Source: Christiangramia sabulilitoris (GTDB lineage: Bacteria; Bacteroidota; Bacteroidia; Flavobacteriales; Flavobacteriaceae). Taken from it: a stretch of 64,000 nucleotides of DNA. Each line of letters starts with the position of its first letter. Within the stretch, counting starts at the first letter, position 1. The stretch lies in NCBI RefSeq assembly GCF_007050985.1, contig NZ_VHSF01000003.1, positions 469,500 through 533,499 on the forward strand, read 5' to 3'. Shown in pieces: positions 741-35,800 of the stretch. Position numbers and translations under genes: made by a program. The notes beneath the pieces were generated by a model that had not been told where the DNA came from, ran no database searches, and saw nothing but the letters and a program-made list of their open reading frames with translations.

Positions 741-1162
741 GTAATTGTCATTTTGATGAAGTTCCGAAGTGACGGTACGATAAACTTCTCGATACATTTT
801 CCTGCAATTTTCATTGCCGGAAAACACTCGAAGTGACGGTTTACTCCCCTGAAAATTCTATTCTACGTCAGTTCGAGTGGATTCGAAGATGCGTTAGTAG
901 ATTCGAATTTGTATCGAGAACCGACTGGTTTCATTACGAACGCAGACTTCTCGATACAATTTTATCTCAATTCTTTCGATAAAATCACTCGAGGTGACGG
1001 TTTAATCCCCTGAAAATTCTATTCCACGTCAGTTCGAGTGGATTCGAAGATGCGTTAGCAGATTCGAATTTGTATCGAGAACCGACTGGTTTCATTAGGA
1101 ACAAAGACTTCTCGATACATTTTCCCGCAATTTGCATTGCTGGAAAACACTCGAAGTGACGG
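741..1162. repeat. Array of alternating inverted hairpin elements (3 L, 2 R)
   Basis: L-type elements lie at 785-839, 947-1000 and 1108-1162. Each begins CTTCTCGATAC and ends CACTCGAAGTGACGG (CACTCGAGGTGACGG in the second). R-type elements at 866-921 and 1026-1082 begin CGTCAGTTCGAGTG and end GTATCGAGAAC, so they are L in inverse orientation. Each encloses a stem-loop whose arms differ between copies but still pair, for example TTTTCC with GGAAAA in one and ATTTTATC with GATAAAAT in another. A partial element end lies at 763-775. No gene is seen between 624 and 1370. Confidence 0.85.
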
Positions 1163-1164
1163 AT

Positions 1165-1386
1165 GACTGCTAATTGTTTATTGTGCATTGTCAATTGTCA
1201 CTCTGAAAGCAGTGAAGAGTCTCGACATTAGACTTTAAACCCAGAATTCATAAAATTCTTCATCCCGCACAGGACGGACAACCGACAACTGACAACGGAT
1301 AACTGTTTATTGTTTATTGCTAATTGATTATTGTTGATTGATCCAACTCATTGTTTCATTGTTTCATTAATCAATTAATCAATTTA
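1165..1386. repeat. Low-complexity A/T-rich degenerate repeats
   Basis: Variants of TTGTTTATTG, CTAATTG and AATCAATT recur here. A similar degenerate tract lies at 31140-31200 beside the heptamer array. No coding potential is seen. The tract runs into the 3' end of the YjbH-like gene, whose last codons are Asn/Lys/Ile-rich. Confidence 0.5.
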
Positions 1387-2498: not shown

Positions 2499-3276
2499 AG
2501 CTTCTTAATGTTTTGGGTAAAAAGTCCAGTGAAAAATTTACGGCGGCGCTGAATGCAAATTCCCTGCCTTCATAGGTGTGCCCCTGGAGGTTGAGCCATT
2601 CCCAGGGTTGTATATAGGCCCCGGCGTTAATAGTGTTAGAATCATATTCGGCCAGTAAACCTCCCCAGGTCACCGGCTGATATTTGAGCCCGGCAAAGAA
2701 ACCGGTGAGGTAATTTGCCTTTAACCGCGAGTCTGATTTCCTCTGTACTTCAAAATCCAGAAAAGATTCGGAGTTTGGTTTTTTAATAAAAACATAAGGT
2801 GAACCATAACCGGAAGAGATCTGAAGTTTACCGATTGAAGTTTCAAAATTTTTGGTTAGGACCAGATAATCATGGGCCAGGTAAGGCGCTGCCGATCCCG
2901 GTGGAGTCCATCCCAGGACAATTGATGGTGTATACTTTTTTTCTTTTAAAATCCGGAACCTGAAATCCAGTTGTCGGTCACCAACGCCCAGTCTATTAAT
3001 TTCCGCCCGGGCAGGCCGGTGAGCTACACTCAGGTTCACTTCAAAAAAGGAAGTAAAAGCAGCCCTGGCATTATAAAAATTTACGGTGGTAAGTTCATTC
3101 CCGAACATACTATAAGCACCGGGCAGGTGGGCAAAGGAAAAACCTACCGGCTTTTGCTCCATCCATTCCGCCGAAGGCGTATTTATATACCCCGGTTTTC
3201 CCATGATGTTGACCTGGGAATGGATTTTAGTAGCTAAGAGGCTAAGAATTAAGATTAGGAGGATGCGGGAAAGCAT
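2479..3276 (-). CDS. YjbH-like outer-membrane protein, N-terminal half
   Basis: The protein has 265 residues, with a signal peptide of about 20 residues ending before 'QVNIMGKPGYINTPSA'. The phrase 'GYINTPSA' is a hallmark of the YjbH N-terminal domain. Later segments ('RQLDFRFRIL', 'TPSIVLGW', 'TGFFAGLKYQP') look like barrel strands. It ends 20 bases inside the next gene, so the pair is probably co-translated. Function is inferred from family and context: exopolysaccharide export at the outer membrane. Confidence 0.72.
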   Translation of the reverse strand: MLSRILLILILSLLATKIHSQVNIMGKPGYINTPSAEWMEQKPVGFSFAHLPGAYSMFGNELTTVNFYNARAAFTSFFEVNLSVAHRPARAEINRLGVGDRQLDFRFRILKEKKYTPSIVLGWTPPGSAAPYLAHDYLVLTKNFETSIGKLQISSGYGSPYVFIKKPNSESFLDFEVQRKSDSRLKANYLTGFFAGLKYQPVTWGGLLAEYDSNTINAGAYIQPWEWLNLQGHTYEGREFAFSAAVNFSLDFLPKTLRSYEKVRD

Positions 3277-8682: not shown

Positions 8683-10323
8683 CTAACAAGAAGCGTCAGT
8701 CCGAGTGATTTCTACCACTGTGGAAGCAGGGGTAGAAATTGTATCGAGGACAAGCGGCCTGATGACGATTTCTGCTCTGTCCTGAATTCTGTATATAATT
8801 TTTTTTGCCGGCTGTAGTTTATTAAAACCCACTGCTAATTGATATTCTTTCAAGTGCATTTCGGTTGCACCGGAAATTTGCAGTTCCAGGATGTCATTAA
8901 TAATAATTCTGTTCTCAATGACTTCAGGCTGCACATCAGGATGAAAATGTAAATGGCCTTCGGCTATAATCTTGTTGGCCTTGCCTTCAATTCTATCTTC
9001 AATTCTAAATTCTCCCGAAGTAAAACCAAACGATCTTTTATGGATAACACCAAATTTCCGATAACCGTTGTGAGATGCTTCGATACCATTTTCAGTTTCC
9101 TTTATTATTGAAACCTTCGCTCGCTCAGCTACTCTAAAACCTCCCCAAACATTTGAAGAGTTTAGATCATTAATTGTAACCGTATTATGAGCAGCGGTAG
9201 AACGCTCCAATTGTCGGCGTTCATTTTTTTCATAAGTGGAAATTCCCGTATCAACAATTATTGGTCTGTTCTTATAGTTAAAAACAAACTGTAAACTGTC
9301 AGCGTGTGAATGTCCGGGTTGATAGTACGGAGCGATTTGCCCTACATCGGCTATGATCTCAAAATCATGGTTTGAAAATTTTCTATAGCCTGAATCTGAT
9401 AATTTTACTTTTCTACTAGCCAATCCCAGTCTTTTAGCATAACCGATTAATTCATTTGTACCGGGTGCAATTCCCTTGGCCGCGTCATTTAGTTTTGGAA
9501 TATCTCCATTACTGAAGCTGATCTCATTTAGCCATCCAAGCATAACTTCGGCTTTTCCCTTCAACAATGAAAGAAGTTCTCTATCCTTCCATGAATTATG
9601 CTGAACAAGGTATATAGAATCAAGAATTCGGTGTAAAATGATCTGATGGTACATAGGGCTCAGCTCATAATGAGCACCATCCTTTAGTACTTGTTCTTCG
9701 AGTTCCTTTTTTAATATTTTTCTTGCTTTATGATATAACCGGTCGTCTTTAAAATAATAGGAACCAAATAATAATGAAAACCCGTTTTCCAATAAATGGT
9801 TCGCCAGTAAATGATATTCAAGACTGTCATATAATCTCAAGTAGTCCCTATACAGGAAGGTATTTATCTCCTCATCCTGAATTTTGTTTTCAGCTAGAAA
9901 CTTGATCCAGTTGATTCCGCGTAAAGAGATAGGATAAGGTTCCAAACCATCTTGTAACGCATCTGCAAAAGAAATATAGTCTCTGATCAACCTAAGATTT
10001 TCTTGCTTTTTCATTCCTTCCTGGTTAAGAAACTCAAAATAATTGAGGTTATAGGTCCACAGTTTCCCATATTCACTATAGTTCCAATCTATCTTAGAGA
10101 ACTGTTTTTCGAGATTTAGAAATGAAAAACTGTTTTGCCCAAGAAATGATTTGGGGCAAATTATTCCTCTTTGGAGTTTCAACTGGATCCCCTGCTGCTG
10201 CGTTGCAGTGTATGATTTATTAATAAATCTGTTCTTCGCACGATAATACACCTGATGATAAAGCTGGGTCGGCTTCACATTCTTGAGAGTATTATAGTAT
10301 AATGAAATTTTTCCTGAGAACAT
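8683..10323 (-). CDS. Heparinase II/III-like (alginate-lyase family) protein
   Basis: The protein has 546 residues. An N-terminal helical half (about 60-300) is followed by a heparinase II/III C-terminal beta domain, recognised by 'YQPGHSHADSLQFVF', 'PIIVDTGISTYEKNERR' and 'STAAHNTVTIND'. No clear signal peptide is seen. In polysaccharide loci such genes are often paired with the two-domain oxidoreductase that lies just upstream here; the role may be trimming or editing of a uronic-acid-containing polymer. The last 20 or so codons lie inside a hairpin repeat element (8694-8750), so the natural C-terminus has probably been replaced by repeat-encoded residues. Confidence 0.85.
   Translation of the reverse strand: MFSGKISLYYNTLKNVKPTQLYHQVYYRAKNRFINKSYTATQQQGIQLKLQRGIICPKSFLGQNSFSFLNLEKQFSKIDWNYSEYGKLWTYNLNYFEFLNQEGMKKQENLRLIRDYISFADALQDGLEPYPISLRGINWIKFLAENKIQDEEINTFLYRDYLRLYDSLEYHLLANHLLENGFSLLFGSYYFKDDRLYHKARKILKKELEEQVLKDGAHYELSPMYHQIILHRILDSIYLVQHNSWKDRELLSLLKGKAEVMLGWLNEISFSNGDIPKLNDAAKGIAPGTNELIGYAKRLGLASRKVKLSDSGYRKFSNHDFEIIADVGQIAPYYQPGHSHADSLQFVFNYKNRPIIVDTGISTYEKNERRQLERSTAAHNTVTINDLNSSNVWGGFRVAERAKVSIIKETENGIEASHNGYRKFGVIHKRSFGFTSGEFRIEDRIEGKANKIIAEGHLHFHPDVQPEVIENRIIINDILELQISGATEMHLKEYQLAVGFNKLQPAKKIIYRIQDRAEIVIRPLVLDTISTPASTVVEITRTDASC
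8694..8750. repeat. R-type hairpin element inside the 3' end of a CDS
   Basis: It begins CGTCAGTCCGAGTG and ends GTATCGAGGA, matching the R element of the intergenic arrays. The core forms a 9-bp stem, ATTTCTACC with GGTAGAAAT, unlike the stem of any other copy in the window. It covers the final codons of the heparinase-like gene, whose stop is 9 bases beyond it. Confidence 0.8.
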
Positions 10324-23365: not shown

Positions 23366-24738
23366 TAGAGCTTTCCATTAGATCTTAACAATATTCCCTT
23401 CACATCATAAACCACCGCATTTTCATTCTTGAGAGTTTCTAAATCCATCGCCAAAAACTCCTTATGCGCCACAGCTAAAACCACAGCACCAAACTTTTGC
23501 TGCGGTAATTGGTTGGTAGTTTGTAGGCCATATTCGCATTGTACTTCTTCCGGGTTAGCCAGGGGATCATAAATAGTAATATTAGTTCCGTAAGATTTCA
23601 ATTCTTCGACCACATCTACCACCTTAGTGTTTCGTACGTCCGGGCAATTCTCTTTAAAGGTGATTCCCAACACCAGGATGTTCGCTCCTTTAACCTTCAA
23701 ATCATTTTGAAGCATCAATTTTATGACTTCTGAGGCTACATATTTACCCATAGAGTCGTTCATGCGCCTTCCAGCAAGGATGATCTCCGGGTGGTATCCA
23801 ATTTCCTGTGCCTTTTGAGCCAGGTAATATGGATCTACCCCTATACAATGCCCACCAACCAGTCCCGGTTTAAAAGGCAAGAAGTTCCATTTGGTACCAG
23901 CGGCTTCCAGAACAGCGTTGGTGTCAATGTTCATCTTGTTAAAGATCTTCGCCAATTCATTTACAAAGGCAATATTGATATCCCTTTGAGAATTCTCGAT
24001 CACCTTGGCGGCCTCAGCAACTTTTATACTTGGCGCCAGATGAGTACCTGCGGTAATCACGCTTTTATAAAGCTCATCTACCTTTTTTCCAACCTCAGGA
24101 GTAGAACCTGCGGTCACCTTTAAGATCTTCTCTACCGTGTGTTCTTTATCTCCGGGATTGATACGCTCAGGCGAATAGCCTACAAAGAAATCTTCATTGA
24201 ATTTTAATCCACTTACTCGTTCCAACACCGGCACACATTCATCCTCTGTCACTCCCGGATAAACCGTTGATTCATAAATTACGATATCTCCTTTTTTCAA
24301 AACACTTCCTACAGCCTCACTGCTTTTATATAACGGAGTAAGATCGGGTCGGTTATTTTTATCGATTGGTGTGGGGACGGTTATCACATAATAATTACAG
24401 TCGGCAATGTCTCCAAGATCAGTGGTGCAGTAAAGGCCGTTTTTCACCTCAACTTCTTCTTTAACCTCGAATATGTCTCCCTGGAATCCGCTTGCAACGG
24501 TATCAGAAAGCTGCAGGTGTAACGAAGGCTCAGAAACAAACGGATAATTTGCCAGTAATACTTTTCTTAAAACCTCATCTTCAACTTCCAGGGTGGAGTC
24601 ATGGCCTTTTCTTAGCTCCTTTACCCGGTTTAAATTTATATCGAATCCTATAACCGGAAATTTAGTAGCAAATAACCTGGCCAGAGGCAAGCCTACATAC
24701 CCCAGGCCTATAACCGCAATTCTTGGTTGATCGTTCAT
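23365..24738 (-). CDS. Nucleotide-sugar dehydrogenase, TviB/WbpO-like (UDP-HexNAc to UDP-HexNAcA)
   Basis: The protein has 457 residues. The N-terminal Rossmann motif is 'IAVIGLGYVGLPLARLFA'. The catalytic Cys lies in 'PGLVGGHCIGVDPYYLA', and the C-terminal UDP-binding domain in 'NILVLGITFKENCPDVRNTK'. The sequence resembles TviB/WbpO, which oxidise UDP-GlcNAc or UDP-GalNAc at C6. A UDP-ManNAc (WecC) role with the nearby wecB is also possible. It supplies an acidic sugar for the polysaccharide. Confidence 0.9.
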   Translation of the reverse strand: MNDQPRIAVIGLGYVGLPLARLFATKFPVIGFDINLNRVKELRKGHDSTLEVEDEVLRKVLLANYPFVSEPSLHLQLSDTVASGFQGDIFEVKEEVEVKNGLYCTTDLGDIADCNYYVITVPTPIDKNNRPDLTPLYKSSEAVGSVLKKGDIVIYESTVYPGVTEDECVPVLERVSGLKFNEDFFVGYSPERINPGDKEHTVEKILKVTAGSTPEVGKKVDELYKSVITAGTHLAPSIKVAEAAKVIENSQRDINIAFVNELAKIFNKMNIDTNAVLEAAGTKWNFLPFKPGLVGGHCIGVDPYYLAQKAQEIGYHPEIILAGRRMNDSMGKYVASEVIKLMLQNDLKVKGANILVLGITFKENCPDVRNTKVVDVVEELKSYGTNITIYDPLANPEEVQCEYGLQTTNQLPQQKFGAVVLAVAHKEFLAMDLETLKNENAVVYDVKGILLRSNGKL

Positions 24739-24759
24739 TTTTGAAAAATTATTTTGTAA

Positions 24760-25003
24760 TTAAAACAGGGCTTCGCCGCCGTGAGTCCCAGTGAGGAACT
24801 CCCGTAAAATATTTTTATAAACCTGAGGGAAAAGATCTTAGTCAGGAAAGACTAAGAAATCACATAAGTAGGGTTGGTCAGGTCATCATTTTCTTACAGC
24901 CCGCAAATATATACTGAACTGTTAGTTGGGGCAAAGGCTTTAATGTTAAATTTTTAACTTTTTTTAAGTGCTTATTAACAATAACGATGTAATGGGGTTT
25001 TAG
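24760..25003. repeat. Intergenic repeats and small hairpins
   Basis: The gap after the dehydrogenase gene holds a GGCTTCGCCGCCGTGAGTCC stretch with a GAGT...ACTC dyad, and CTTAGTCAGGAAAGACTAAG (24836-24855), a 7-bp stem with a 6-base loop. Neither is followed by a strong T-run, so I do not call a terminator. No gene is seen. Confidence 0.4.
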
Positions 25004-25190
25004 CTTCTCGATACATTTTCCAACCATTTCCATGGTTGGAAAACACTCGAAGTGACGGGCGTGCTTCTCTTATAAAAACTATTGCCGTTAGGTCGAGAAG
25101 ATTGGAAGATGCAGTAGCAGATTTGAATTTGTATCGACTTCTCGATACAATTTTATCTCAATTCTTCCGATAAAATCACTCGAAGTGACG
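25004..25190. repeat. Hairpin element array (L-R-L)
   Basis: L at 25004-25058 has the longest inner stem of its kind, TTTTCCAACCAT pairing with ATGGTTGGAAAA. R lies at 25086-25138, and a second L at 25138-25190 starts within R's last base, so GTATCGAC runs straight into CTTCTCGATAC. The array ends 6 bases from the 3' end of cysQ. Confidence 0.85.
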
Positions 25191-25196
25191 TTTAAC

Positions 25197-25985
25197 TTAC
25201 TTTACTAGAAACCAGTTATTCAGCAGTTCTTGACGGTTGTATAGCATCTCCTCCCCTGTTTTATGATCTATGACGGTCTTGCCGGCGAATGAACAGATAG
25301 CCTGCCCGGCGGCGGTATCCCACTCCATAGTCGGAGCGAAACGAGGATATTCATTCGCCACACCCTCGGCGACCATACAGAGCTTTAAAGAACTTCCTTT
25401 GGAAATGGTTTTTATTTCCCCGTGTTCTTTTTCTAAAGATTTGATATATTCTTCGGTTTCCGGGGAAAGGTGAGATTTGCTGGCAACTACGGTGTATTTT
25501 TTATTATCTATTGCTATTGGTAATTTATTTGCCTTAGAAATAATTTCCTCCAATGTTGAATAAGCTGTAATACCCTCAAGTTTAAAAGCACCTGATTCCT
25601 TAGACGCAAAATACAGTTGCTCTAATGCCGGTACATAGATCACTCCCAACACAGGTTTTTGACCCTCTACCAAAGCGATATTGACGGTGAACTCACCATT
25701 GCGTTTGATAAATTCCTTGGTACCGTCTATAGGATCCACGATCCAGAGTTTTTTCCAGGTCCTCCTGGTCTCATAAGGCAAATGTGCGCCTTCCTCAGAC
25801 AGTACCGGAATACCGGTTTGCTCCAGATGTTTCATAATGATCCTGTGAGAGGCGAGATCGGCTTTGGTAAGCGGGGAATCATCCCCTTTGAAATCGACTT
25901 CAAAGTCTTCATTCTCGTAGATCTCCATGATCCTTTTTCCTGCTTCGAGGGAGGCTTGTATAGCGGTGTGTAGTAGGTGTTGCAT
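25197..25985 (-). CDS. cysQ: 3'(2'),5'-bisphosphate nucleotidase (PAP phosphatase)
   Basis: The protein has 262 residues of the inositol-monophosphatase superfamily. Metal-site motifs are 'DDSPLTKADLASH', 'LSEEG' and 'LWIVDPIDGTKEF', with 'MEWDTAAGQAI' near the C-terminus. CysQ recycles the PAP left by sulfotransfer and sulfate assimilation. Its position between sugar genes of this locus raises the possibility of a sulfated polymer, but no sulfotransferase is seen in the window. Hairpin arrays flank it on both sides. Confidence 0.93.
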   Translation of the reverse strand: MQHLLHTAIQASLEAGKRIMEIYENEDFEVDFKGDDSPLTKADLASHRIIMKHLEQTGIPVLSEEGAHLPYETRRTWKKLWIVDPIDGTKEFIKRNGEFTVNIALVEGQKPVLGVIYVPALEQLYFASKESGAFKLEGITAYSTLEEIISKANKLPIAIDNKKYTVVASKSHLSPETEEYIKSLEKEHGEIKTISKGSSLKLCMVAEGVANEYPRFAPTMEWDTAAGQAICSFAGKTVIDHKTGEEMLYNRQELLNNWFLVK

Positions 25986-26043
25986 TTGATATTTTTTTTA
26001 CATTCCAGATTCGGAATGCAGACAAAGCAAAGTTACTATTTTA

Positions 26044-26252
26044 CTTCTCGATACATTTCCCAGAAACTATCGTTTCTGGAAAACACTCGAAGTGACGACC
26101 GTGCTTCTCTTATAAAAATCCAACACTGTCAGTTCGAGTGAATTTAAAGCTGCGGCAGCAGGTTTGAATTTGTATATAGAACCGAGGTAGTAAACCACTT
26201 CTCGATACGATTTTCTCTCAGTAACCTTCGACAAAATCACTCGAAGTGACGG
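26044..26252. repeat. Hairpin element array (L-R-L) at the 3' side of GIY-YIG copy 1
   Basis: L at 26044-26097 has the stem CCAGAAAC/GTTTCTGG. R lies at 26127-26182. L at 26197-26252 has a GATTTT/AAAATC stem. The last L stops 4 bases before the GIY-YIG stop codon. Confidence 0.85.
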
Positions 26253-26256
26253 TATA

Positions 26257-26547
26257 TTATTCGAAACTTTTCCTGGCCAGGTTGGGTAACTCATCATATT
26301 TGCCATCGAATAAAGCCTGCTTTTTGAGCCTAGACCATTTTTTGATCTGCTTCTCCTTTTCTATCGCCAGATTGATATCAGTAAATTCCGAATACCAGAC
26401 CAGCTCTACAGGTTTTCGTTTTTCAGTATAACTACCAGGATGAGCTCCTGAATTGTGTTCTTCCAGTCTTTTTTCTAAATAAGAGGTTACACCGGTGTAA
26501 TAAGTATCGTCGGAACATTTAAGTATATAAACATAGCTTAACTTCAT
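26257..26547 (-). CDS. GIY-YIG nuclease domain protein, repeat-bracketed copy 1
   Basis: A 96-residue single-domain GIY-YIG protein. The motif reads 'VYILKCSDDTYYTGVT' (residues 6-21), followed by Arg27/His31 in 'LEKRLEEH' and the Glu-containing helix 'AIEKEKQIKKWSR'. It resembles the UPF0213/YhbQ-type group, whose cell role is poorly defined (DNA nicking or nuclease activity). The copy at 29405-29695 matches at 85 of 96 residues by my count. Each lies between CTTCTCGATAC hairpin elements a few bases from the stop codon and a few dozen from the start. It interrupts the sugar-gene order (rmlB to cysQ), as expected of a mobile insert. Confidence 0.9.
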   Translation of the reverse strand: MKLSYVYILKCSDDTYYTGVTSYLEKRLEEHNSGAHPGSYTEKRKPVELVWYSEFTDINLAIEKEKQIKKWSRLKKQALFDGKYDELPNLARKSFE

Positions 26548-26573
26548 TATAAAGAGTTGGTTTTAAAAAATCA

Positions 26574-27047
26574 CTTCTCGATACTTTTCCCTGCAATTTG
26601 CATTGCCGGGAAACACTCGAAGTGACGGGCGCGCTTCTTTTTACACAAACTATTGCCGTCAGTTCGAGTGGATTTAAAGCTGCGGGAGCGGCTTTGAATT
26701 TGAATCGACTTCTCGATAAAATTTTATCTCAATTCTTTCGATAAAATCACTCGAAGTGACGATCTATCCCCCTTAAAATTCTAATCCACGTCAGTTCGAG
26801 TGGATTTGAAGATGCGGAAGCAGATTCAAATATGTATCGAGAACAGAGGTGCCAAATCACTTCTCGATACGATTTTCCCTCAGTAACCTTCGGCAAAATC
26901 ACTCGAAGTAACGATTCACTCCCCTTAAAACCCTGATCCACGTCAGTTCAAGTGGATTTGAAGATGCGAGAGCAGATTCAAATTTGAATCGACTTCTCGA
27001 TACGATTTTCTCTCAGTAACCTTCGATAAAATCACTCGAAGTGACGG
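26574..27047. repeat. Hairpin element array (4 L, 3 R alternating)
   Basis: L elements lie at 26574-26628, 26709-26761, 26860-26913 and 26993-27047, with R elements at about 26657-26709, 26789-26842 and 26941-26992. The period is roughly 135-150 bases. Two spacer types alternate: one begins GGGCG(T/C)GCTTCT, the other GATCTATCCCCCTTAAAATT. The stems differ between copies yet remain paired (TTTCCC with GGGAAA; ATTTTATC with GATAAAAT). The array fills the gap between GIY-YIG copy 1 and rmlB; no gene is seen. Confidence 0.88.
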
Positions 27048-27092
27048 TATACTATAACAGTTAAATGAAGCTTACGGCATTTAGCTTAATGC

Positions 27093-28124
27093 TTAAGACT
27101 TATATCCTTCATATTTCTCCAGATACCACTCAACAGTTTTTATAATCCCGGATTCAAAATTCTCTTCTGCTTTCCAGCCGAGTTCATTTTCAATTTTCGA
27201 AGCGTCTATAGCATACCTGCGGTCATGACCAGCGCGATCTTCCACATAACTGATCTGATCTTTATAACTGCCTTCTGTTTTTGGCTTTAAACGATCCAGT
27301 AGTTCGCAAATATAATTCGCTATATAATTATTATTCTTTTCGTTTCTTCCGCCAATATTATAGACCTCCCCGGCTTTACCATTCTTAAAGGCCAGCTCCA
27401 CTCCTTTGACGTGATCTTTTACAAATAGCCAGTCACGGATATTCTTTCCATCGCCATAGATCGGAATTTTCTCTCCCTGCAAGGCTTTCCTGATGATCGT
27501 AGGGATCAGTTTTTCATCATGTTGCCTGGGTCCGTAGTTGTTGGAACAATTGGTAATAATAGTGTTCAAGCCATAAGTATGATGGTAACTTCTCACCAAC
27601 ATATCTGCCGCGGCCTTACTTGCGGAATAAGGAGAATTGGGGGCATATGGAGTATTTTCAGTAAAAAGACCGGTTTCACCAAGTGTACCATAAACCTCAT
27701 CTGTGGAGATCTGGTGAAAACGGCATCCCTCAAACTCTTTCTTATAGTGAAAGGGTTTCGTCATCCAGAATTTATATGCCACATCCAGCAGGTTGAAAGT
27801 TCCGTTTACATTGGTTTTGATAAAGATCTCTGGATCCTTAATGGAATTATCCACATGGGATTCCGCCGCAAAATTAATGACCGCATTTACCTTATGCTCA
27901 TGAAAAATTTCCTCCACCAGCTTTCTATCCCTGATGTCACCTTTGATAAATTGATAGCCTACATGATTTTCCACACCGCTTAAATTTCTCCTATCCCCGG
28001 CATAGGTCATAAGATCCAAGTTGATGATCTTAGATCCGGGATTGGTTGTCAGGTAATACGCGATAAAATTTGAGCCTATGAAACCAGCTCCTCCGGTTAC
28101 CAGTATAATTTTAGATTGCTTCAT
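27093..28124 (-). CDS. rmlB: dTDP-glucose 4,6-dehydratase
   Basis: A short-chain dehydrogenase-type protein of 343 residues with 'ILVTGGAGFIGSNFIAYYL' at the N-terminus, 'QISTDEVYGTLG' (TDE) and 'YSASKAAADMLVRSYHHTYG' (YxxxK). It turns dTDP-glucose into dTDP-4-keto-6-deoxyglucose. The start overlaps the stop of rmlA by one base. No rmlC or rmlD is in the window, so either they lie elsewhere or the product feeds another deoxysugar route. Confidence 0.95.
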   Translation of the reverse strand: MKQSKIILVTGGAGFIGSNFIAYYLTTNPGSKIINLDLMTYAGDRRNLSGVENHVGYQFIKGDIRDRKLVEEIFHEHKVNAVINFAAESHVDNSIKDPEIFIKTNVNGTFNLLDVAYKFWMTKPFHYKKEFEGCRFHQISTDEVYGTLGETGLFTENTPYAPNSPYSASKAAADMLVRSYHHTYGLNTIITNCSNNYGPRQHDEKLIPTIIRKALQGEKIPIYGDGKNIRDWLFVKDHVKGVELAFKNGKAGEVYNIGGRNEKNNNYIANYICELLDRLKPKTEGSYKDQISYVEDRAGHDRRYAIDASKIENELGWKAEENFESGIIKTVEWYLEKYEGYKS

Positions 28125-28999
28125 TATCCTTTCGCTCTTTTGATAAGATATTCTCCATATGAACTTTTCTTTAGAGGAGCCGCCAGTTCAATCAACTGTT
28201 GCCTGCTTATATATCCTTTCTCATAAGCTATCTCTTCCAGGCAGGCTACTTTTAGCCCTTGTCTTTTCTCTATAGTATGTATAAAATTTGAAGCCTCCAG
28301 CATGGATTCATGGGTGCCGGTATCCAGCCAGGCATATCCCCTGCTCATGATCTCCATCTTTAACTGATCCCGGTCCATGTATTCCTGAATTACCGAGGTT
28401 ATTTCCAGTTCCCCACGCCTGCTGGGTTTTACTTCTTTAGCTATATCTACTACGGAATTCGGAAAGAAATACAATCCCACCACAGCATAATTACTTTTAG
28501 GATCTTCAGGTTTTTCTTCGATACTCTGCACATTCCCTTCGGCATCAAACTCAGCCACCCCGTACCGACCCGGCTCATTCACATAGTATCCAAAAATGGA
28601 AGCTTTTCTATGTTCGGTTACATTATAAACAGAATTCCGCAGGAGACCGGTAAAGCCATGTCCGTAGAAAATATTATCCCCCAGAACCAGACAAACGTCA
28701 TCATTACCGATAAACTCTTCTCCGATTATAAAGGCCTGCGCCAGACCTTCCGGTTTAGGCTGAACCTTATACTGAAAATTCATCCCCAGTTCTGAACCAT
28801 CTCCAAGTAGTTTCTCAAAATTGGAAAGATCTCCCGGAGTGGATATTATAAGAACCTCTCTTATCCCTGCCAGCATCAATACCGATAAGGGATAATAGAT
28901 CATGGGCTTATCATAAACATTCAGCAGTTGCTTGGACACTCCCTTGGTGATTGGATACAAACGGGTTCCGGAACCGCCGGCAAGGATAATTCCTTTCAT
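28124..28999 (-). CDS. rmlA: Glucose-1-phosphate thymidylyltransferase
   Basis: The protein has 291 residues, the usual length. '[18 protein letters not shown]' gives the nucleotide-binding signature, followed by '[20 protein letters not shown]', '[11 protein letters not shown]' and '[16 protein letters not shown]'. It makes dTDP-glucose for RmlB. A hairpin array and GIY-YIG copy 2 separate it from the antiterminator gene upstream. Confidence 0.96.
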
Positions 29000-29080
29000 A
29001 TAGAACAGTTAATGTTAAGAGTTGCTAAAATAGGGAATATAGATCACTTAGGATTAGTGACAGTGGGCCGCAAACTTTAG

Positions 29081-29400
29081 CTTCTCGATACATACTTTCA
29101 AAACTCTCGTTTGAAAGTATACTCGAAGTGACGGGCGTGTTCCTTTTATTATTAATCCGCGTCAGTTCGAGTGAATATGAAGATGCCAGAGCAGATTTAA
29201 ATTTGAATCGACTTCTCGATACAATTTTATCTCAATTCTTTCGATAAAATCACTCGAAGTGACGGGCGTGCTTCTCTTATAAAAAACTATTACCGTCAGT
29301 TCGAGTGGATTTGAAGATGCGGGAGCAGGTTTAAATTTGTACCGACTTCTCGATACGATTTTCTCTCAGTACTCTTCGATAAAATCACTCGAATTGACGG
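29081..29400. repeat. Hairpin element array (3 L, 2 R) at the 3' side of GIY-YIG copy 2
   Basis: L elements lie at 29081-29134, 29212-29265 and 29345-29400; R elements at 29160-29212 and 29294-29345. The first L has the stem ATACTTTCAAA with TTTGAAAGTAT, unlike any other copy, so the arms have changed together. The last L ends 4 bases before the stop of GIY-YIG copy 2, exactly as for copy 1. Confidence 0.88.
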
Positions 29401-29404
29401 TATA

Positions 29405-29695
29405 TTATTCGAACCTTTTCCGGGCCAGATTGGGTAAATCTTCATATTTGCCATCGATTAAAGCCTGCTTTTTGGGCCTAGACCATTTTTTGATCTGCTT
29501 CTCCTTTTCTATCGCCAGATTGATATCAGTAAATTCAGAACACCAGACCAGCTCTACAGGTTTTCGCTTTTCAGTATAACTACCAGGGTGAGCTCCTGAA
29601 ATGTGTTCTTCCAGTCTTTTTTCAAGGTTCAAAGTTACACCGGTGTAGAATGTGTCATCTGAACACTTTAAAATATATACAAAGCTTAATTTCAT
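29405..29695 (-). CDS. GIY-YIG nuclease domain protein, repeat-bracketed copy 2
   Basis: A 96-residue paralogue of 26257-26547, with 11 substitutions, mostly conservative (Y5F, Y16F, D85E, E86D). The motif 'VYILKCSDDTFYTGVT' and the catalytic Arg and Glu region are kept, so both copies look intact. Its downstream flank (4 bases between L element and stop) matches copy 1. Upstream an L element with the same TGCAATTTGCATTGC core occurs in both. Similarity therefore extends over the whole L-gene-L unit of about 435-500 bases. Confidence 0.9.
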   Translation of the reverse strand: MKLSFVYILKCSDDTFYTGVTLNLEKRLEEHISGAHPGSYTEKRKPVELVWCSEFTDINLAIEKEKQIKKWSRPKKQALIDGKYEDLPNLARKRFE

Positions 29696-29725
29696 AATCT
29701 TAAAGACTTCTTGTACATCCCTTCA

Positions 29726-30396
29726 CTTCTCGATACTTTTCCCTGCAATTTGCATTGCCAGGAAACACTCGAAGTGACGAGAGTGTTGCTTTTTATTAAA
29801 ACTATTACCGTCAGTTCGAGTGAATTTAAAACTGCGGTAGCGGCTTTGAATTTATACCGACTTCTCGATACGATTTTCTCTCAGTACCCTTCGGTAAAAT
29901 CACTCGAAGTGACGATCTATCCCCTTTAAAATTCTAATCCATAGTTCGAGTGGATTTGAAGATGCGGAAGCAGATTCAAATATGTATCGAGAACAGAGGT
30001 GCCAAACCACTTCTCGATACGATTTTCTCTCAATTCTTTCGATAAAATCACTCGAAGTGACGGGCGTGCTTCTCTTATAAAAAACTATTACCGTCAGTTC
30101 GAGTGGATTTGAAGATGCGGAAGCAGATTCAAATATGTATCGAGAACCGAGGTAATGAAACTTCGAACCACTTCTCGATACGATTTTCTCTCAGTACCCT
30201 TCGGTAAAATCACTCGAAGTGACGATCTATCCCCTTTAAAATTCTAATCCATAGTTCGAGTGGATTTGAAGATGCGGAAGCAGATTCAAATATGTATCGA
30301 GAACCGAGGTAATGAAACTTCAAACCACTTCTCGATACGATTTTCTCTCAATTCTTTCGATAAAATCACTCGAAGTGACGTGTAATACTCGAAGTG
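29726..30396. repeat. Largest hairpin element array (5 L, 4 R)
   Basis: L elements lie at 29726-29779, 29861-29914, 30010-30063, 30171-30224 and 30328-30380; R elements at about 29809-29861, 29941-29993, 30092-30147 and 30251-30305. Two R elements (29941 and 30251) lack the leading CGTC and share the same spacer, so they are products of a recent internal duplication. A partial element end lies at 30387-30396. The array fills the 5' flank of GIY-YIG copy 2 up to the antiterminator's 3' end. Confidence 0.88.
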
Positions 30397-30468
30397 AAGA
30401 CTAACCATAACAGGTAATTGCAGCTTACTGCTTACGGCCTAGAACTTATAGCATAGTCTAAAACCTAA

Positions 30469-30942
30469 TCATAGTACATCCTGCACATTGGCAGTGAGGG
30501 TCCAGCCGATATCAGGAAGGATTAGTTTAAGTTTTTTGGCTCCCACTTCTTTAATGATCGCCTTCTTATTAGCCATTCTACCCGATTTGATCTCCACCAC
30601 GTCCCCGGGTTTAAGGCTACCTACCTTGAAATCGTCTAACTGATCATTATTCAGCCAGGAGCGAATAGCCTCTATCTCTTCAGGTTTAGCCAGTGCGGGC
30701 TTCTTTAACCAGTTCAGAAATCCCAGCACTCCCGGAACCTCATACACCTGGTGGCGGGTGGCCACCTCCATATTTACAAAAAGGTAGCCCCGAAAAAGCG
30801 GGACGGTCACTTTCTTCTTGCGGTCTGTCCATTGTCTTACTTCAGTAATTACCGGACAAAATACCTCCACCCCGAGATCTTCCAGGATCTCAGCAGATTT
30901 TAGCTCGTGTTGTGGTTTCGTACGAATTACATACCAGGGCAT
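30469..30942 (-). CDS. UpxY-family transcription antiterminator (NusG-like)
   Basis: The protein has 157 residues. An N-terminal NGN domain ('WYVIRTKPQHELKSAEILED', 'PLFRGYLFVNM') is followed by a KOW domain ('LKPGDVVEIKSGRMANKKAI'). Such NusG paralogues sit first in capsule operons of Bacteroidota and let RNA polymerase read through long polysaccharide transcripts. Here it is the first gene of the 30-kb minus-strand locus. A candidate promoter and a leader hairpin lie just upstream, and a 7-bp tandem array further up. It probably controls the whole locus. Confidence 0.92.
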   Translation of the reverse strand: MPWYVIRTKPQHELKSAEILEDLGVEVFCPVITEVRQWTDRKKKVTVPLFRGYLFVNMEVATRHQVYEVPGVLGFLNWLKKPALAKPEEIEAIRSWLNNDQLDDFKVGSLKPGDVVEIKSGRMANKKAIIKEVGAKKLKLILPDIGWTLTANVQDVL

Positions 30943-30967
30943 ACTGCGATATTTTATTCAGGATGTT

Positions 30968-31007
30968 AATTTCTCGCAGCAGGGTGCCTGTTAACAGGGG
31001 AGAAATT
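30968..31007 (-). promoter_or_regulatory. Leader hairpin upstream of the antiterminator gene
   Basis: AATTTCTC and GAGAAATT form an 8-bp stem enclosing the palindrome CCTGTTAACAGG. On the minus strand it would begin close to the predicted transcription start and lies 26 bases before the ATG. It is a reasonable target for UpxY-type binding or a pause site. Inference from position and structure only. Confidence 0.45.
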
Positions 31008-31013
31008 GATTGG

Positions 31014-31044
31014 TAAAAATACATTTTTTTTACCGAGTAGTCAA
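31014..31044 (-). promoter_or_regulatory. Candidate promoter of the polysaccharide locus
   Basis: On the minus strand a TTG (31042-31044) is followed after 20 bases by TATTTTTA (31014-31021), one base off TAnnTTTG. Spacing fits Bacteroidota -33/-7 promoters. It lies about 70 bases before the antiterminator start and ends 12 bases from the heptamer array. Confidence 0.45.
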
Positions 31045-31055
31045 GGGAGAAGTTA

Positions 31056-31134
31056 GTTGTGGGTTGTGGGTTGTGGGTTGTGGGTTGTGGGTTGTGGGTT
31101 GTGGGTTGTGGGTTGTGGGTTGTGGGTTGTGGGT
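31056..31134. repeat. 7-bp tandem array, about 11 copies of GTTGTGG
   Basis: A perfect run of the heptamer GTTGTGG covers 79 bases without an interruption. It lies 12 bases upstream of the predicted -33 element of the polysaccharide locus. Perfect short tandem arrays readily gain and lose units by slippage, so promoter spacing or local structure could vary between cells. The G-rich strand could also form a quadruplex. Confidence 0.95.
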
Positions 31135-31139
31135 AATTT

Positions 31140-32500
31140 AAAAAATTAGCATTGATTCCTGATTACTGTTCATTGTTTATTGTTCATTGTTAATTGGTTA
31201 TTGTTTGGTGTCATTTCGAAGGAGCGCAGCGAATGAGAAATCTCTTTGAAGTCTGAATTTAGAAGTGGGAAGTATTAAAAAGGATGTGGGAAGTACGAAA
31301 TTAGAATTACGAATTGGGAAGTATGAGAATTGGTGATTGTCATTTTGAAGAAGCGCAGCGACTTGACTTCTCGATACATTTTCCCGCAATATGCATTGCT
31401 GAAAAACACTCGAAGTGACGGTCGAGTTTCCCAAAAAATTGTTCCCCCGCTTTAGTGCGGGTTGATTCGAAGAAGGAAGTGGTAAGTATGAGAATTGTTT
31501 ATTGTCATTTCGAAGGAGCGCAGCGACTGGAGTTGGAAGTGGGAAGTACGAAGTTAGAATTACGAATTGGGAAGTATGAGAATTGATGATTGTCAATTCG
31601 AATAAGCCTAGCGACCGGACTTCTTTTGAAGTGGGAAGTACGAAATGGGAAGTATGAGAATTGGTATTGTCATTTAGAAGAAGCACAGTGACTGGAATTC
31701 TTTTGAAGTGGGAAGTACGAAGTTAGATTTACGAATTGGGAAGTATGAGAATTGGTGATTGTCATTTCAAAGAAGCGCAGCGGATGGACTTCTTTTGAAG
31801 TGGGAAGTACGAAGTTAGAATTACGAATTGGGAAGTATCAGATTTGGTGATTGTCATTTCGAAGGAGTGCATCGACTGGACTTCTCGATACATTTTCCCG
31901 CAATTCACATTGCTGAAAAACACTCGAAGTGACGGTCGAGTTTCCCAAAAAATTGTTCCCCCGCTTTAGTGCGGGTTGATTCGAAGAAGGAAGTGGTAAG
32001 TATGAGAATTGTTTATTGTCATTTCGAAGAAGGGCAGCGACTTTGAAGTGGGAAGTACGAAGTTAGAATTACGAATTGGGAAGTATCAGATTTGGTGATT
32101 GTCATTTCGAAGGAGCGCAGCGACTGGACTTCTCGATACATTTTCCCGCAATTTGCATTGCTGAAAAACACTCGAAGTGACGGTCGAGTTCCCCAAAAAA
32201 TTGTTCCCCCGCTTTAGTGCGGGTTGATTCAAAGAAGGAAGCGAGAAGTACGAAGTTAGATTTAGGAATTGGGAAGTATGAGAATTGTTTGATTTTCATT
32301 GAAAAAGTCAGCCTTCGACCCATCGACAGGCTCTGGGTGCTCAGCCCGAGAGGTTATAATAGAAAGGGAACCATTAATAATAATATTCTCCAGTATAGAT
32401 TTTACAAATCAAATCCTCCAAACTGCAAACCAAAAACAACGAACTACCTGAGATTTCTCTCCCGAAGGGCGGGATCAAAATGACAATCTAAACTAAGAGG
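31140..32500. repeat. Dense mixed repeat block without a gene
   Basis: Three near-identical composites are seen: an L hairpin element (31367-31421, 31881-31935, 32129-32183), then GGTCGAGTT, then a small hairpin CCCGCTTTAGTGCGGG. Family GTCATTTCGAAGGAGCGCAG sequences sit directly beside them. Between them run degenerate units such as GAAGTGGGAAGTACGAAGTT and GAATTACGAATTGGGAAGTA, repeated many times. 32440-32495 carries an inverted member ending GGGATCAAAATGACA. Open frames across the block are repeat-derived and not called. Confidence 0.85.
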
Positions 32501-32562
32501 CCGGGTAAAAAACTTCGAATCAAAACATTTAACTGAAAACTGCGAACTGCAAACTGTAAACT

Positions 32563-32595
32563 AAAAAAGCCCAAATCGAAAGATTTGGGCTTTTT
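32563..32595. terminator. Bidirectional rho-independent terminator after tRNA-Gln
   Basis: AAAGCCCAAATC and GATTTGGGCTTT form a 12-bp stem with a short loop and T-runs on both strands. It lies 2 bases past the 3' end of the tRNA on the minus strand. Confidence 0.9.
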
Positions 32596-32596
32596 G

Positions 32597-32669
32597 TTGG
32601 CCTACTAGGGCTCGAACCTAGACTCTTCTGGACCAAAACCAGACGTGTTGCCAGTTACACCATAGGCCA
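32597..32669 (-). tRNA. tRNA-Gln (anticodon TTG)
   Basis: The minus strand gives a 73-base cloverleaf. The acceptor stem is TGGCCTA with TAGGCCA plus discriminator A. The anticodon arm is TCTGG, loop TTTTGGT, CCAGA, and the T arm contains GGTTCGAGCC. The loop places TTG at 34-36, reading CAA/CAG. No CCA is encoded at the 3' end. A terminator follows directly. The polysaccharide locus begins just beyond the neighbouring repeats, so the tRNA could mark a variable-region edge. Confidence 0.95.
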
Positions 32670-32881
32670 ATGCTTAAATGCGGATGCAAATTTAAAACAA
32701 AGTTTAATGTACACAAACTTTTCACCCAAATTTTATTGAAAAAATTGCACTTTATTTTGAAATTTCCTCCCCCGTCTTCATTTCCAGTTACTTCCAAAAT
32801 AACAGCTTTTGTTTATCGTTTTGGAAGCATTCAGCATTTTATTATTAAATTCGCCACTTTAGTACAACTACCTTAGTATTT

Positions 32882-35800
32882 ATGACAGATCTTAACTTTA
32901 GTAAGTGGAACAAAATCCTGGGCTGGCTGGTTTTTGTCATCGCCCTCACTACCTATACCCTTACTCTGGAACCAACGGCAAGTTTCTGGGATGCCGGTGA
33001 ATATATAGCAACTTCTGCGAACCTGGAAGTAGGTCACCCGCCGGGTGCACCGTTCTACCAGATGATGGGAGCTTTTTTCTCCACCTTTGCCCCTGATAAT
33101 TCCAAGGTCGCCCTCATGGTGAATTTTATGTCTGGTTTTGCCAGTGCCATTGCGATCATGTTTATGTTCTGGTCTATCACCATGTTGGTCTTAAAGGTCG
33201 CCGGACCCGTTTCAAAATTAACCCCTTCTAAAAAATTAGGCGTTCTGGGCAGCGGTTTGGTGGGCTCACTGGCTTTTACCTTTACCGATAGTTTCTGGTT
33301 CAATGCCGTGGAAGCCGAAGTATATGCCATGGCCGCCTGCTTTATGAGTATCATGTTCTACCTGGGATTAAAGTGGGAACGGGACATGTTCAAACCCCGT
33401 GGAAACCGGTGGATCATCTTAATTTCCCTGGTCATAGGTCTTTCTTTTGGAGTGCACTTTATGGGTCTGCTTACCCTGCCCGCTATCGGATTCCTGTACT
33501 TCTTCAAGAATTATAAGGAGGTAACCGTTAAGAATTTTCTTATTGCAAATGTGGTCGTGGTGGCCGTGCTGATGTTCATCTTCAAACTTCTGCTACCCTA
33601 TACACTTACTTTCTTTTCGGCTTCAGAATTGTTTTTTACGAATAGCCTGGGCATGCCTTTCAACACCGGGACGATCATCGCTTTATTAGTGATCGTAGCC
33701 GCTTTTTACTTCGGAATAAACTATACCCGGAAGAAGAACCTTTATAAATACAACACCCTCCTATTATGTATCCTGTTCGTGCTAATTGGATTTTCCAGCT
33801 GGGTGATGCTTCCCATAAGAAGTAACGCGCCAACGGTGATCAATGAGAACAGCCCGGATAACGCCCGTGAACTACTGGCTTATTACAACCGGGAACAGTA
33901 CGGGGAAACCCATCTTTTTTACGGGCCGCAATGGTCTGAAATGTACTCCGGCCTCGATGAAGACAATCCATATGAGGATGCAAAGCCCAAATATGAAAAA
34001 GACGAGGAACTGGGTAAATATGTGATCGTAAACGAATATAAGAATGCCAAGCAGAACCTGGACGATGATCATAAGGCTGTCCTCCCGCGTATGTGGAGTT
34101 CTGAACATGCGGTAAATTATATGGAATTTACCGGTCCGCTGGATTTCAGGATCAAACCCGAATATCAGGGTGAAGAAAGACTCCTGCAGGCGGTTAACGA
34201 ATTTAAATCTCAATTCTCTCGTGGCGAAAGGGATATGGAAGACTACCATAATTTCCTTAGACAGTTCAGCGAATACCTGGATGTGGAAAAACCTTCCTTT
34301 GCCGAAAATATTGGCTATTTACTGGAGTACCAGTTTGGCTATATGTACTGGCGGTATTTTATGTGGAATTTCACCGGGCGTCAGGATGATATACAGGGGA
34401 AATATACCGACCTGCATGGAAACTGGCTTAGCGGGATAGACTTTATAGACGAAATGCACCTGGGTAGCCAGGATATGCTGCCGTCTGATGCTGAAAACAA
34501 TAAGGCCCGCAATACCTATTATTTTCTTCCTTTTATCCTGGGATTAATAGGTCTGGTCTTTCATTTAAAGAGAGATAAAAAGAATTTCTGGGTATTGATG
34601 GTATTTTTTCTGTTCACCGGGATCGCTCTGAAAATATACCTTAATGAACGTCCTTTTGAACCAAGGGAAAGAGATTATGCGCTGGTAGGATCATTCTATG
34701 TATTTGCTATCTGGATTGGCTTCGGGGTTTATGCATTGTTTGACAAACTACGAAATTACCTCAGCCCTAAGATCGTGGCCCCGGTAGTGATCGCAGGAAG
34801 TTTACTGGCTGTGCCCGTCTTACTGGCTTCAGAAAACTGGGACGACCACGATCGCTCCGGAAGGGATACCGCTCTTACCATGGCCAGGATGTACCTGGAC
34901 TCGGTAGATGAAAATGCCATCCTGTTCACCATAGGAGACAATGACACCTTCGCCCTCTGGTATGTGCAGCAAATTGAAAGATACAGAACAGATGTTAGGA
35001 TCGTAAACACCAGCCTTCTCGCAACCGACTGGTATATAGACCAAATGAAGCGCAAGGCTTTTGAAAGTGATGCCCTGCCATCTCAGCTGGAGAATGACTT
35101 CTACAACGGGAAGAACGACGCGATCTTTTTAAGAGAGGTCACCCAGGATACCATTCCGATCAAAACCTGGATGAATTATATTGAAAATGAAGATCCGCGT
35201 ACGCAGGCAGAATTGCAAAGCGGGACCTTCATTAACACTTTCCCGTCCCGTTACGTAAAAGTACCGGTAGATAAGCAAACAGTATTAAAAAACAATATCG
35301 TTGATGAATCTGAAGCTGATGAGATCGTGGATGAGATCGTGATCACTATTGGCGACCAGATCCTGTATAAGAACCGCTTATTAATGATGGATATCCTGGC
35401 GAATAACGACTGGGAAAGACCTATCTATTTCACCGGCGGAAGCTTTGGTGATGAAGATTATCTCTGGATGAAAGATTACCTGCAGCTCGAAGGGGTTACC
35501 TACAAGCTGGTACCTATACGCACTCCTCTGAATCCGCGGAATCCATTTGATATGGGAAGGGTGAATACAGAGAAGATGTATAATATTGTTAAAAGCTGGG
35601 ACTGGGGGAACATGGGATCTTCAGATATCTACCATGACCCGGAAACCCGCAAAAACTCTATCACCTATAGGAGTAATCTCGCCAGGCTTACTGAAAACCT
35701 GCTAAAAGAAGGCGATACTATTAAAGCCGAAGAGATACTGGATCTGGGGATGCAACATATGCCGGTAGAACACTATGAGTATTATACCTTATTGGAACCA

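What the first reader, a model, noticed from the sequence alone, without database searches (positions are those of the whole stretch)
26197..29780. Two GIY-YIG genes bracketed by the hairpin elements: candidate mobile unit
Both 96-aa genes have the same layout: an L element ends 4 bases from the stop codon, and another L with the TGCAATTTGCATTGC core lies about 25-30 bases upstream of the start. The proteins match at 85 of 96 residues and the flanks are alike, so an L-gene-L unit of about 430-580 bases has been copied. Each copy breaks up the order of sugar genes. By analogy with REP/RAYT, the nuclease may recognise the hairpin ends and drive spread of the elements. GIY-YIG enzymes are known homing and repair nucleases, but this pairing is not one I know. 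Mobilisation is an inference.
Basis: partly seen in the sequence, partly recalled or inferred. Interest (0 to 1): 0.85.

Follow-up and report, generated by a model that had tools for sequence, protein, structure and literature searches.

The report
Hairpin repeats paired with dedicated nucleases
Two small genes of a DNA-cutting enzyme family sit inside clusters of short hairpin repeats, and comparison with other bacteria shows that branches of this enzyme family are accompanied by their own hairpin sequences, which suggests that these enzymes are the missing partners of a widespread class of bacterial repeats.

Summary
Both 96-aa GIY-YIG genes are bracketed by 50-53-nt hairpins with a conserved foot (CGTCA-S-TTCGAGTG...TATCGAGAA-S'). 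Of 79 loci (the best of 313 relatives), 73 have such an element within 200 bp on both sides; gaps next to the gene hold one in 137/139 cases, other gaps in 32/316. Other small GIY-YIG clades carry different hairpins, and hairpin class follows the protein tree (label-free). Similar layouts occur in Neisseria, Aeromonas and Azospirillum. The elements resemble CGTC-tagged REPs, said in 2013 to "apparently lack a dedicated transposase" (PMC3733652). From memory only, the enzyme corresponds to the Ssn nucleases acting on Neisseria NTS repeats; that paper was not held. Verdict: a new variant of a known kind, analogous to RAYT/REP with an unrelated enzyme. Mobilisation is unproven: at a ruvB site in 23 congeners, gene plus hairpins are present, absent or relic, and the two window units are mosaics. 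Against strict dependence, 46 of 164 genomes without a near-clade gene still carry elements.

The parts
26257..26547 (-). 96-aa GIY-YIG nuclease gene, copy 1 (clade 1 / class A)
   Evidence: conserved GIY-YIG residues in a 50-row alignment
26197..26251 (+). 3' flanking hairpin element of copy 1
   Evidence: single-strand DNA fold z -1.3
26573..26627 (+). 5' flanking hairpin element of copy 1 (TGCAATTTGCATTGC core)
   Evidence: fold z -4.2
29405..29695 (-). 96-aa GIY-YIG nuclease gene, copy 2
29345..29399 (+). 3' flanking hairpin element of copy 2
29725..29779 (+). 5' flanking hairpin element of copy 2 (TGCAATTTGCATTGC core)
   Evidence: fold z -2.8
26659..27046 (.). array of hairpin elements in both orientations, upstream of copy 1
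29080..29344 (.). hairpin elements downstream of copy 2
29809..30380 (.). array of hairpin elements upstream of copy 2; a 152-nt piece recurs at 96% identity 310 bp on
25003..25190 (+). two further hairpin elements
26043..26178 (.). further element and a decayed inverted partner beside copy 1
   Evidence: the partner is seen in the sequence, not by the scan
8694..8752 (-). one diverged element at the 3' end of a heparinase-like ORF
784..1161 (.). array of elements at the far end of the polysaccharide cluster
   Evidence: more at C17:465981-466447 just outside the window
31366..32182 (+). three single elements beyond the nusG-like gene

Best explanation
The window carries two copies of a small single-domain GIY-YIG nuclease whose dedicated substrate is the flanking CGTC-tagged hairpin family. 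The enzyme probably recognises the conserved foot (5'-CGTCA-S-TTCGAGTG ... TATCGAGAA-S'-3') when it is extruded or single-stranded (replication, transformation, transcription) and nicks it; the hairpin interior is free to vary. Breaks at these sites would promote local recombination, array growth and occasional spread of element doublets and of the hairpin-gene-hairpin unit. Shown here: physical pairing, clade-specific matching of protein and hairpin, covariation of the one free foot pair, alternating inverted doublets. Inferred: binding, nicking, single-strand preference, any mobility. It works like RAYT/REP with a GIY-YIG enzyme in place of the HUH transposase, and is best filed next to the Ssn/NTS systems (recalled).
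For: 79 loci: 77 with an element within 200 bp upstream, 75 downstream, 73 both; intergenic-matched Fisher p 8e-82; CTCGATAC in 78/79 flanks against 1.9 in random pieces of the same loci. In 199 genera, 32 of 35 genomes with the gene have elements, 46 of 164 without (p 2e-12; means 14.8 and 2.75). Flank class on the protein tree: 9 changes for 10 classes, the minimum; shuffled mean 32.4. Label-free: protein pairs of 60% identity or more, known syntenic pairs removed, share three or more flank 9-mers in 138 of 143 (104 of 104 within clade A, 34 of 39 others) against 270 of 1553 below 60%. Foot pair: C-G 170, G-C 179, G-G 44, C-C 0 of 420 elements (p 5e-70); inner stem of 6 bp or more in 62% against 3.6% shuffled; 339 distinct interiors. 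Close neighbours alternate C and G type in opposite orientation in 105 of 147 pairs. Relatives in other phyla: 7 of 12 share a flank motif above all local controls. In a 4.9-Mb Aeromonas record the only two exact pattern matches bracket the gene, inverted, one overlapping its last codons. UPF0213-like fold.
Against: No biochemistry. 46 of 164 genomes without a match at E <= 1e-36 have elements: G202 has 103 and only a class-C gene as its nearest relative; G093 has 21 and only two long GIY-YIG genes; G116 has 7 and only three long ones. Three of the 35 have the gene and no strict element: G054 and G085 have variant elements beside it, and the G192 protein is really class B1, so the 35 are not all clade 1. 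4 of 38 small GIY-YIG genes show no shared flank motif above the 95% control level; 7 of the 34 that do share tRNA pieces, not hairpins; two pass only just; and the regex classes of that script were noisy. Of the 12 relatives from other phyla, Photobacterium, Sphingomonas, Legionella and B. subtilis YazA show no shared bracket, and N. gonorrhoeae does not exceed its repeat-rich local controls although its hairpins are plain. The tree has few columns; only 22 of 46 inner branches are well supported. The element scans fix the foot by construction except for the S-S' pair.
Confidence: 0.75

Rival explanations
1. Autonomous mobile unit: hairpin-gene-hairpin is a minimal transposon-like element (a 'REPtron') that moves by GIY-YIG nicking of its hairpin ends, and solo hairpins are its non-autonomous offspring.
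For: Roughly 50 gene neighbourhoods among 79 clade-1 loci (my upper bound, whose cluster list was cut at 15); two lone exact copies bracketing the gene in Aeromonas; unit between sufB and sufC in Azospirillum; elements nested at the apex of other elements' hairpins; doublets.
Against: 14 loci share one site and 6 another; the ruvB site shows patchy presence with relics, which fits loss; window copies are mosaic; no target duplication or clean empty-site boundary was established.
Confidence: 0.35
2. Modulator of DNA exchange: the nuclease cuts incoming or displaced single strands at hairpin marks and so tunes transformation and recombination around surface loci, as recalled for Neisseria Ssn/NTS and as proposed for dRS3/NIME arrays.
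For: All 28 exact elements of this genome lie in and around one polysaccharide cluster; mosaic gene copies and near-identical array pieces; dRS3 arrays are associated with surface-protein genes and suggested to promote recombination (passages of PMC3898611).
Against: Class D hairpins of the same genome are dispersed (20 exact sites on 4 contigs); whether this host is competent was not examined.
Confidence: 0.4
3. Autoregulation or passive shelter: the hairpins are regulatory or terminator structures of the nuclease gene, or gene and repeats merely accumulate in the same neutral gaps.
For: Tight spacing to start and stop (median 29 and 11 bp).
Against: The same hairpins occur in up to 103 places per genome; only 32 of 316 other gaps hold one; enzyme clade predicts hairpin sequence.
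Confidence: 0.12

Closest known systems
Ssn site-specific single-strand nucleases and NTS/dRS3 repeats of Neisseria (name and function recalled; paper not held)
   Same: Small GIY-YIG gene beside multicopy CGTCA hairpins. The N. gonorrhoeae homologue found here has CGTCATTCCCGCTCAGGCGGGAATCC 2 bases after its stop and another copy about 195 bp upstream, and groups with class D of the window's genome.
   Different: Window clade A lies across a weakly supported split from it; its target is about twice as long, with a bulged foot and a hypervariable stem; it occurs as alternating C/G doublets and, in this genome, only around one polysaccharide cluster.
CGTC-tagged REP superfamily (Di Nocera 2013, PMC3733652; abstract and passages seen)
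   Same: CGTC tag, palindrome, inverted dimers, multicopy; found in five phyla including Bacteroidetes; CGTC-1 of Neisseriae equated with dRS3.
   Different: The paper gives 8-9-bp stems and 4-5-nt loops in most, and no dedicated transposase; here elements are 50-53 nt and have a dedicated enzyme partner.
REP/REPIN with RAYT transposases
   Same: Architecture: bracketed gene, dispersed inverted hairpin doublets.
   Different: GTAG tag and HUH tyrosine transposase; here CGTC tag and GIY-YIG nuclease.
UPF0213 (BH0048, EF2693) and Slx1 GIY-YIG proteins
   Same: Sequence and fold match UPF0213 structures 1zg2 and 1ywl; Slx1 matches are weak (E 0.07 and above).
   Different: The B. subtilis YazA gene fetched as a relative has no flanking hairpins.

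Membership tests
Ssn nuclease family (features recalled) | Small single-domain GIY-YIG protein with the expected residues intact | tested here: met
   Y, Y, R, H and E columns invariant, N in 90% or more of 50 rows; which residues are catalytic is recalled
Ssn nuclease family (features recalled) | Gene flanked by the repeated target hairpin | tested here: met
Ssn nuclease family (features recalled) | Groups with the Neisseria homologue | tested here: inconclusive
   class D groups with it, E and F in a wider group; window clade A is on the other side of a weakly supported split
Ssn nuclease family (features recalled) | Sequence-specific cleavage of single-stranded DNA | not testable with these tools
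   needs purified protein
CGTC-tagged REP | CGTC (or TGTC/CCTC) tag at one end | tested here: met
   after the fixed TGA come CG (375) or CA (35) in 410 of 420
CGTC-tagged REP | Stem 8-9 bp, loop 4-5 nt | tested here: not met
   window elements are 50-53 nt with a bulge, interiors 15-59 nt across loci; class D and dRS3-like hairpins beside other clades are short
CGTC-tagged REP | Inverted dimers | tested here: met
REP/RAYT | HUH tyrosine transposase partner and GTAG tag | tested here: not met
   partner is GIY-YIG, tag is CGTC
Homing endonuclease | Gene inside an intron, intein or other gene | tested here: not met
   window genes are free-standing between other ORFs
Transposon/IS | Clean empty site and target duplication | tested here: inconclusive
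   ruvB site: 6 filled, 4 relic, 13 without visible trace, of 23; no boundary or duplication established

The most novel reading that the evidence does not exclude
The GIY-YIG/CGTC-hairpin pair is a second, independent solution to the RAYT/REP lifestyle: one enzyme superfamily has co-diversified with the CGTC-tagged REPs across several phyla, each clade with its own hairpin code, and the hairpin-gene-hairpin unit of about 400 bp is an autonomous mobile unit built on a GIY-YIG enzyme.
Probability: 0.35. Interest if true: 0.88.

Novelty: new variant of a known kind. Interest (0 to 1): 0.74.

Why it matters
CGTC-tagged palindromes are widespread (five phyla in PMC3733652, abstract and passages seen) and were described in 2013 as apparently lacking a dedicated transposase. 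A matched set of nucleases, one clade per hairpin class, would give each repeat family a testable enzyme, provide a natural specificity series for learning how a protein of about 95 residues reads hairpin DNA, and link repeat arrays to variation of a surface-polysaccharide locus outside Neisseria.

Tried and rejected
Rejected: a genome-wide REP family for class A in this genome (28 of 28 exact elements lie in 36 kb). Rejected: chance association. Rejected: a known Rfam RNA (only a tRNA reached the gathering score in 24500-33000). Rejected: clean duplication of one unit. Weak: the ruvB DNA tree could not order gains and losses; label changes were no fewer than in shuffles. No match of the Aeromonas unit in E. 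coli genomes (blastn, E 1e-5), so no large empty-site panel. A phage search found 23 records, all under 60% identity, and was not followed.

PMC3733652: outline, abstract and passages. PMC3898611: passages. Other papers: listings only.

Selection and dropped rows: the 79 loci are the best of 313 relatives. Of 58 loci considered for searches were used: 17 had no hit to the clade model, two (L095, L103) had long open frames and L092 fell outside the position filter. Flank classes were assigned by me after reading the flanks, since the regex classes were noisy; hence the label-free test, from which syntenic or tandem pairs known to me were removed. Searches hold 12 of the 79 clade-1 loci. The 12 relatives from other phyla were picked by hand from 72 rows of two searches with overlapping records; three without a bracket (L140, L148, L149) were left out. 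Random controls were not limited to intergenic DNA; one search was. Relic and empty states at the ruvB site were read by eye from the first 200 bases after ruvB; one genome (G021) offered only 268 bases and one of 24 genomes had no ruvB match.
Full report
What is there. Two 96-residue GIY-YIG genes (26257-26547 and 29405-29695, - strand) lie in arrays of 50-53-nt hairpin elements. The elements share a foot, written on the strand that carries the tag as CGTCA-S-TTCGAGTG...TATCGAGAA-S', and differ in the interior. An exact pattern finds 28 elements in the 3.21-Mb genome, all within 36 kb, a stretch that holds a polysaccharide cluster: nusG-like gene, rmlA-like nucleotidyltransferase, flippase, glycosyltransferases and YjbH-like ORFs.

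Is the pairing more than chance? A scan of named genomes kept the best 79 loci of 313 relatives (63-74% identity), in records named as Flavobacteriaceae genera or, for some MAGs, as Flavobacteriia, Flavobacteriales or Bacteroidia. An element (one mismatch allowed per end) lies within 200 bp upstream in 77, downstream in 75 and on both sides in 73. Gaps next to the gene hold an element in 137 of 139 cases, other gaps of the same loci in 32 of 316 (Fisher p 8e-82). In 199 genomes, one per genus, 78 have exact elements, with one control hit in all, and 35 have a match to the clade model at E <= 1e-36. Elements occur in 32 of those 35 and in 46 of the other 164 (p 2e-12; means 14.8 and 2.75). The 35 are not pure: the G192 protein is class B1. 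The 46 are real counter-examples to strict dependence: G202 has 103 elements with only a class-C gene as nearest relative, and G093 has 21 with only long GIY-YIG genes.

Different clades, different hairpins. Three other small GIY-YIG genes of this genome are bracketed too, by other sequences: L005 by CGTCACCCTGAACTTGTTTCAGGGTCT-like hairpins, L001 by GTCATTCAGAGCG...GAAGAATCT-like elements, L002 by CTGAGC...GTCGAAG and related hairpins. Of 38 small GIY-YIG genes from 16 genomes (the window's own, 5 congeners, 10 other genera), 34 share a motif between their two flanks above the 95% level of 278 control pairs; in 7 of the 34 the motif is a tRNA piece. On a tree of 50 proteins, ten flank classes, assigned by eye, need 9 changes, the minimum; shuffles average 32.4, none of 200 as low, though many forks are weak. 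Without labels, 138 of 143 pairs of 60% protein identity or more share three or more flank 9-mers: 104 of 104 within clade A and 34 of 39 others, against 270 of 1553 pairs below 60% (Spearman 0.34, 0 of 999 permutations as high). Class D has 20 exact copies on four contigs of this genome, two of them flanking L005.

The element. In 420 elements with exact ends the free foot pair is C-G 170 times, G-C 179, G-G 44 and C-C 0, other combinations 27 (p 5e-70); 62% have an inner stem of 6 bp or more against 3.6% after letter shuffling; 339 interiors are distinct. C-type and G-type elements face opposite ways and alternate in 105 of 147 close pairs. Four window elements folded as single-stranded DNA give z -4.2, -2.9, -2.8 and -1.3 against dinucleotide shuffles.

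Other phyla. Of 12 hand-picked relatives, 7 share a flank motif above all local controls (Planktothrix, Aeromonas, Sinorhizobium, Sphingobium, Azospirillum, Spirosoma, Methylobacterium). N. gonorrhoeae has an exact CGTCATTCCCGC...GGCGGGAATCC copy 2 bases after the gene and another about 195 bp upstream, in a record with 67 exact copies, but its flank score does not exceed its repeat-rich local controls. In a 4.9-Mb Aeromonas record the only two exact copies bracket the gene, inverted, the second overlapping its last codons; an imperfect third copy lies nearby. In Azospirillum two of nine exact copies on a 648-kb replicon bracket the gene, between sufB and sufC. Photobacterium, Legionella and B. 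subtilis YazA show nothing; Sphingomonas has a hairpin on one side.

Mobility. Clade-1 genes lie in roughly 50 neighbourhoods (upper bound), but 14 share one site and 6 another. At the ruvB site of 23 congeners a B2-type gene is present in 6, with hairpins in the five whose loci were read and also in G011; 4 of the others keep what look like relics (gene debris in one, hairpins in three) and 13 show no trace in the bases read. The tree is too weak to order events. The window copies are mosaic, 95% identical in the 3' part of the gene and 73% in the 5' part, with 16 synonymous and 11 non-synonymous codon differences. In congeners, an intact clade-1 gene in G015 is bracketed by two element doublets, and a truncated one in G008 lies beside six elements. 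Three cases, probably two events, show an element nested at the apex of another. This fits slow spread and local recombination better than frequent transposition.

Relation to what is known. Di Nocera et al. (PMC3733652, abstract and passages) define CGTC-tagged REPs in five phyla including Bacteroidetes, equate CGTC-1 of Neisseriae with dRS3, name A. lipoferum and S. [quoted passage not shown] dRS3 arrays are associated with surface-protein genes (PMC3898611, passages). From memory, and not checked, a 2025 paper describes Ssn, a GIY-YIG family of site-specific single-strand nucleases acting on NTS repeats in Neisseria and modulating transformation. The N. gonorrhoeae protein found here groups with class D of this genome; the window's clade A lies across a weakly supported split. 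The model (pLDDT 81, made from a 95-residue reading without the first Met) is UPF0213-like. I therefore file the finding as a new variant of Ssn/CGTC-REP systems: the same kind of pairing, with a longer bulged target, alternating doublets, and, in this genome, confinement to a surface-polysaccharide locus.

Noticed in passing
L007/L010 (own genome C1:901878-902457), L121/L131, L130, L126/L136: A separate group of small GIY-YIG genes sits at tRNA genes (Phe, Leu, Val, Pro by ARAGORN), in several cases in tandem, units followed by a copied piece of the tRNA 3' end; by eye, in L126 the gene seems to split a tRNA-Pro with a short duplication.
   Followed up: partly
L175 993-1095; L047 from 5681 and from 6486: An element lying at the apex of another element's hairpin; may explain part of the interior variety.
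   Followed up: partly
window 31205-32300: Another repeat family near the nusG-like gene: GTCATTTCGAAGGAGCGCAGCGA...GAGAAATCTC-like (class E type) pieces and GTGGGAAGTACGAAGTTAGAATTACGAATTGGGAAGTATGAGAATT-like blocks.
   Followed up: no
window 31055-31140: Tandem run of GTGGGTT units.
   Followed up: no
window 1371-3276: A YjbH-like gene appears split in two overlapping ORFs that match different parts of the Pfam model.
   Followed up: no
L139 (Planktothrix plasmid): A hairpin-flanked small GIY-YIG gene lies between a type IIL restriction gene and DISARM drmA.
   Followed up: no
L141 (Aeromonas caviae): The bracketed gene again lies in what looks like a polysaccharide setting, between a WecA-like and a glycosyltransferase-like ORF (recognised by eye).
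   Followed up: no
L132 926-1324 and about 1490: One small GIY-YIG gene without hairpins lies shortly after tmRNA.
   Followed up: no
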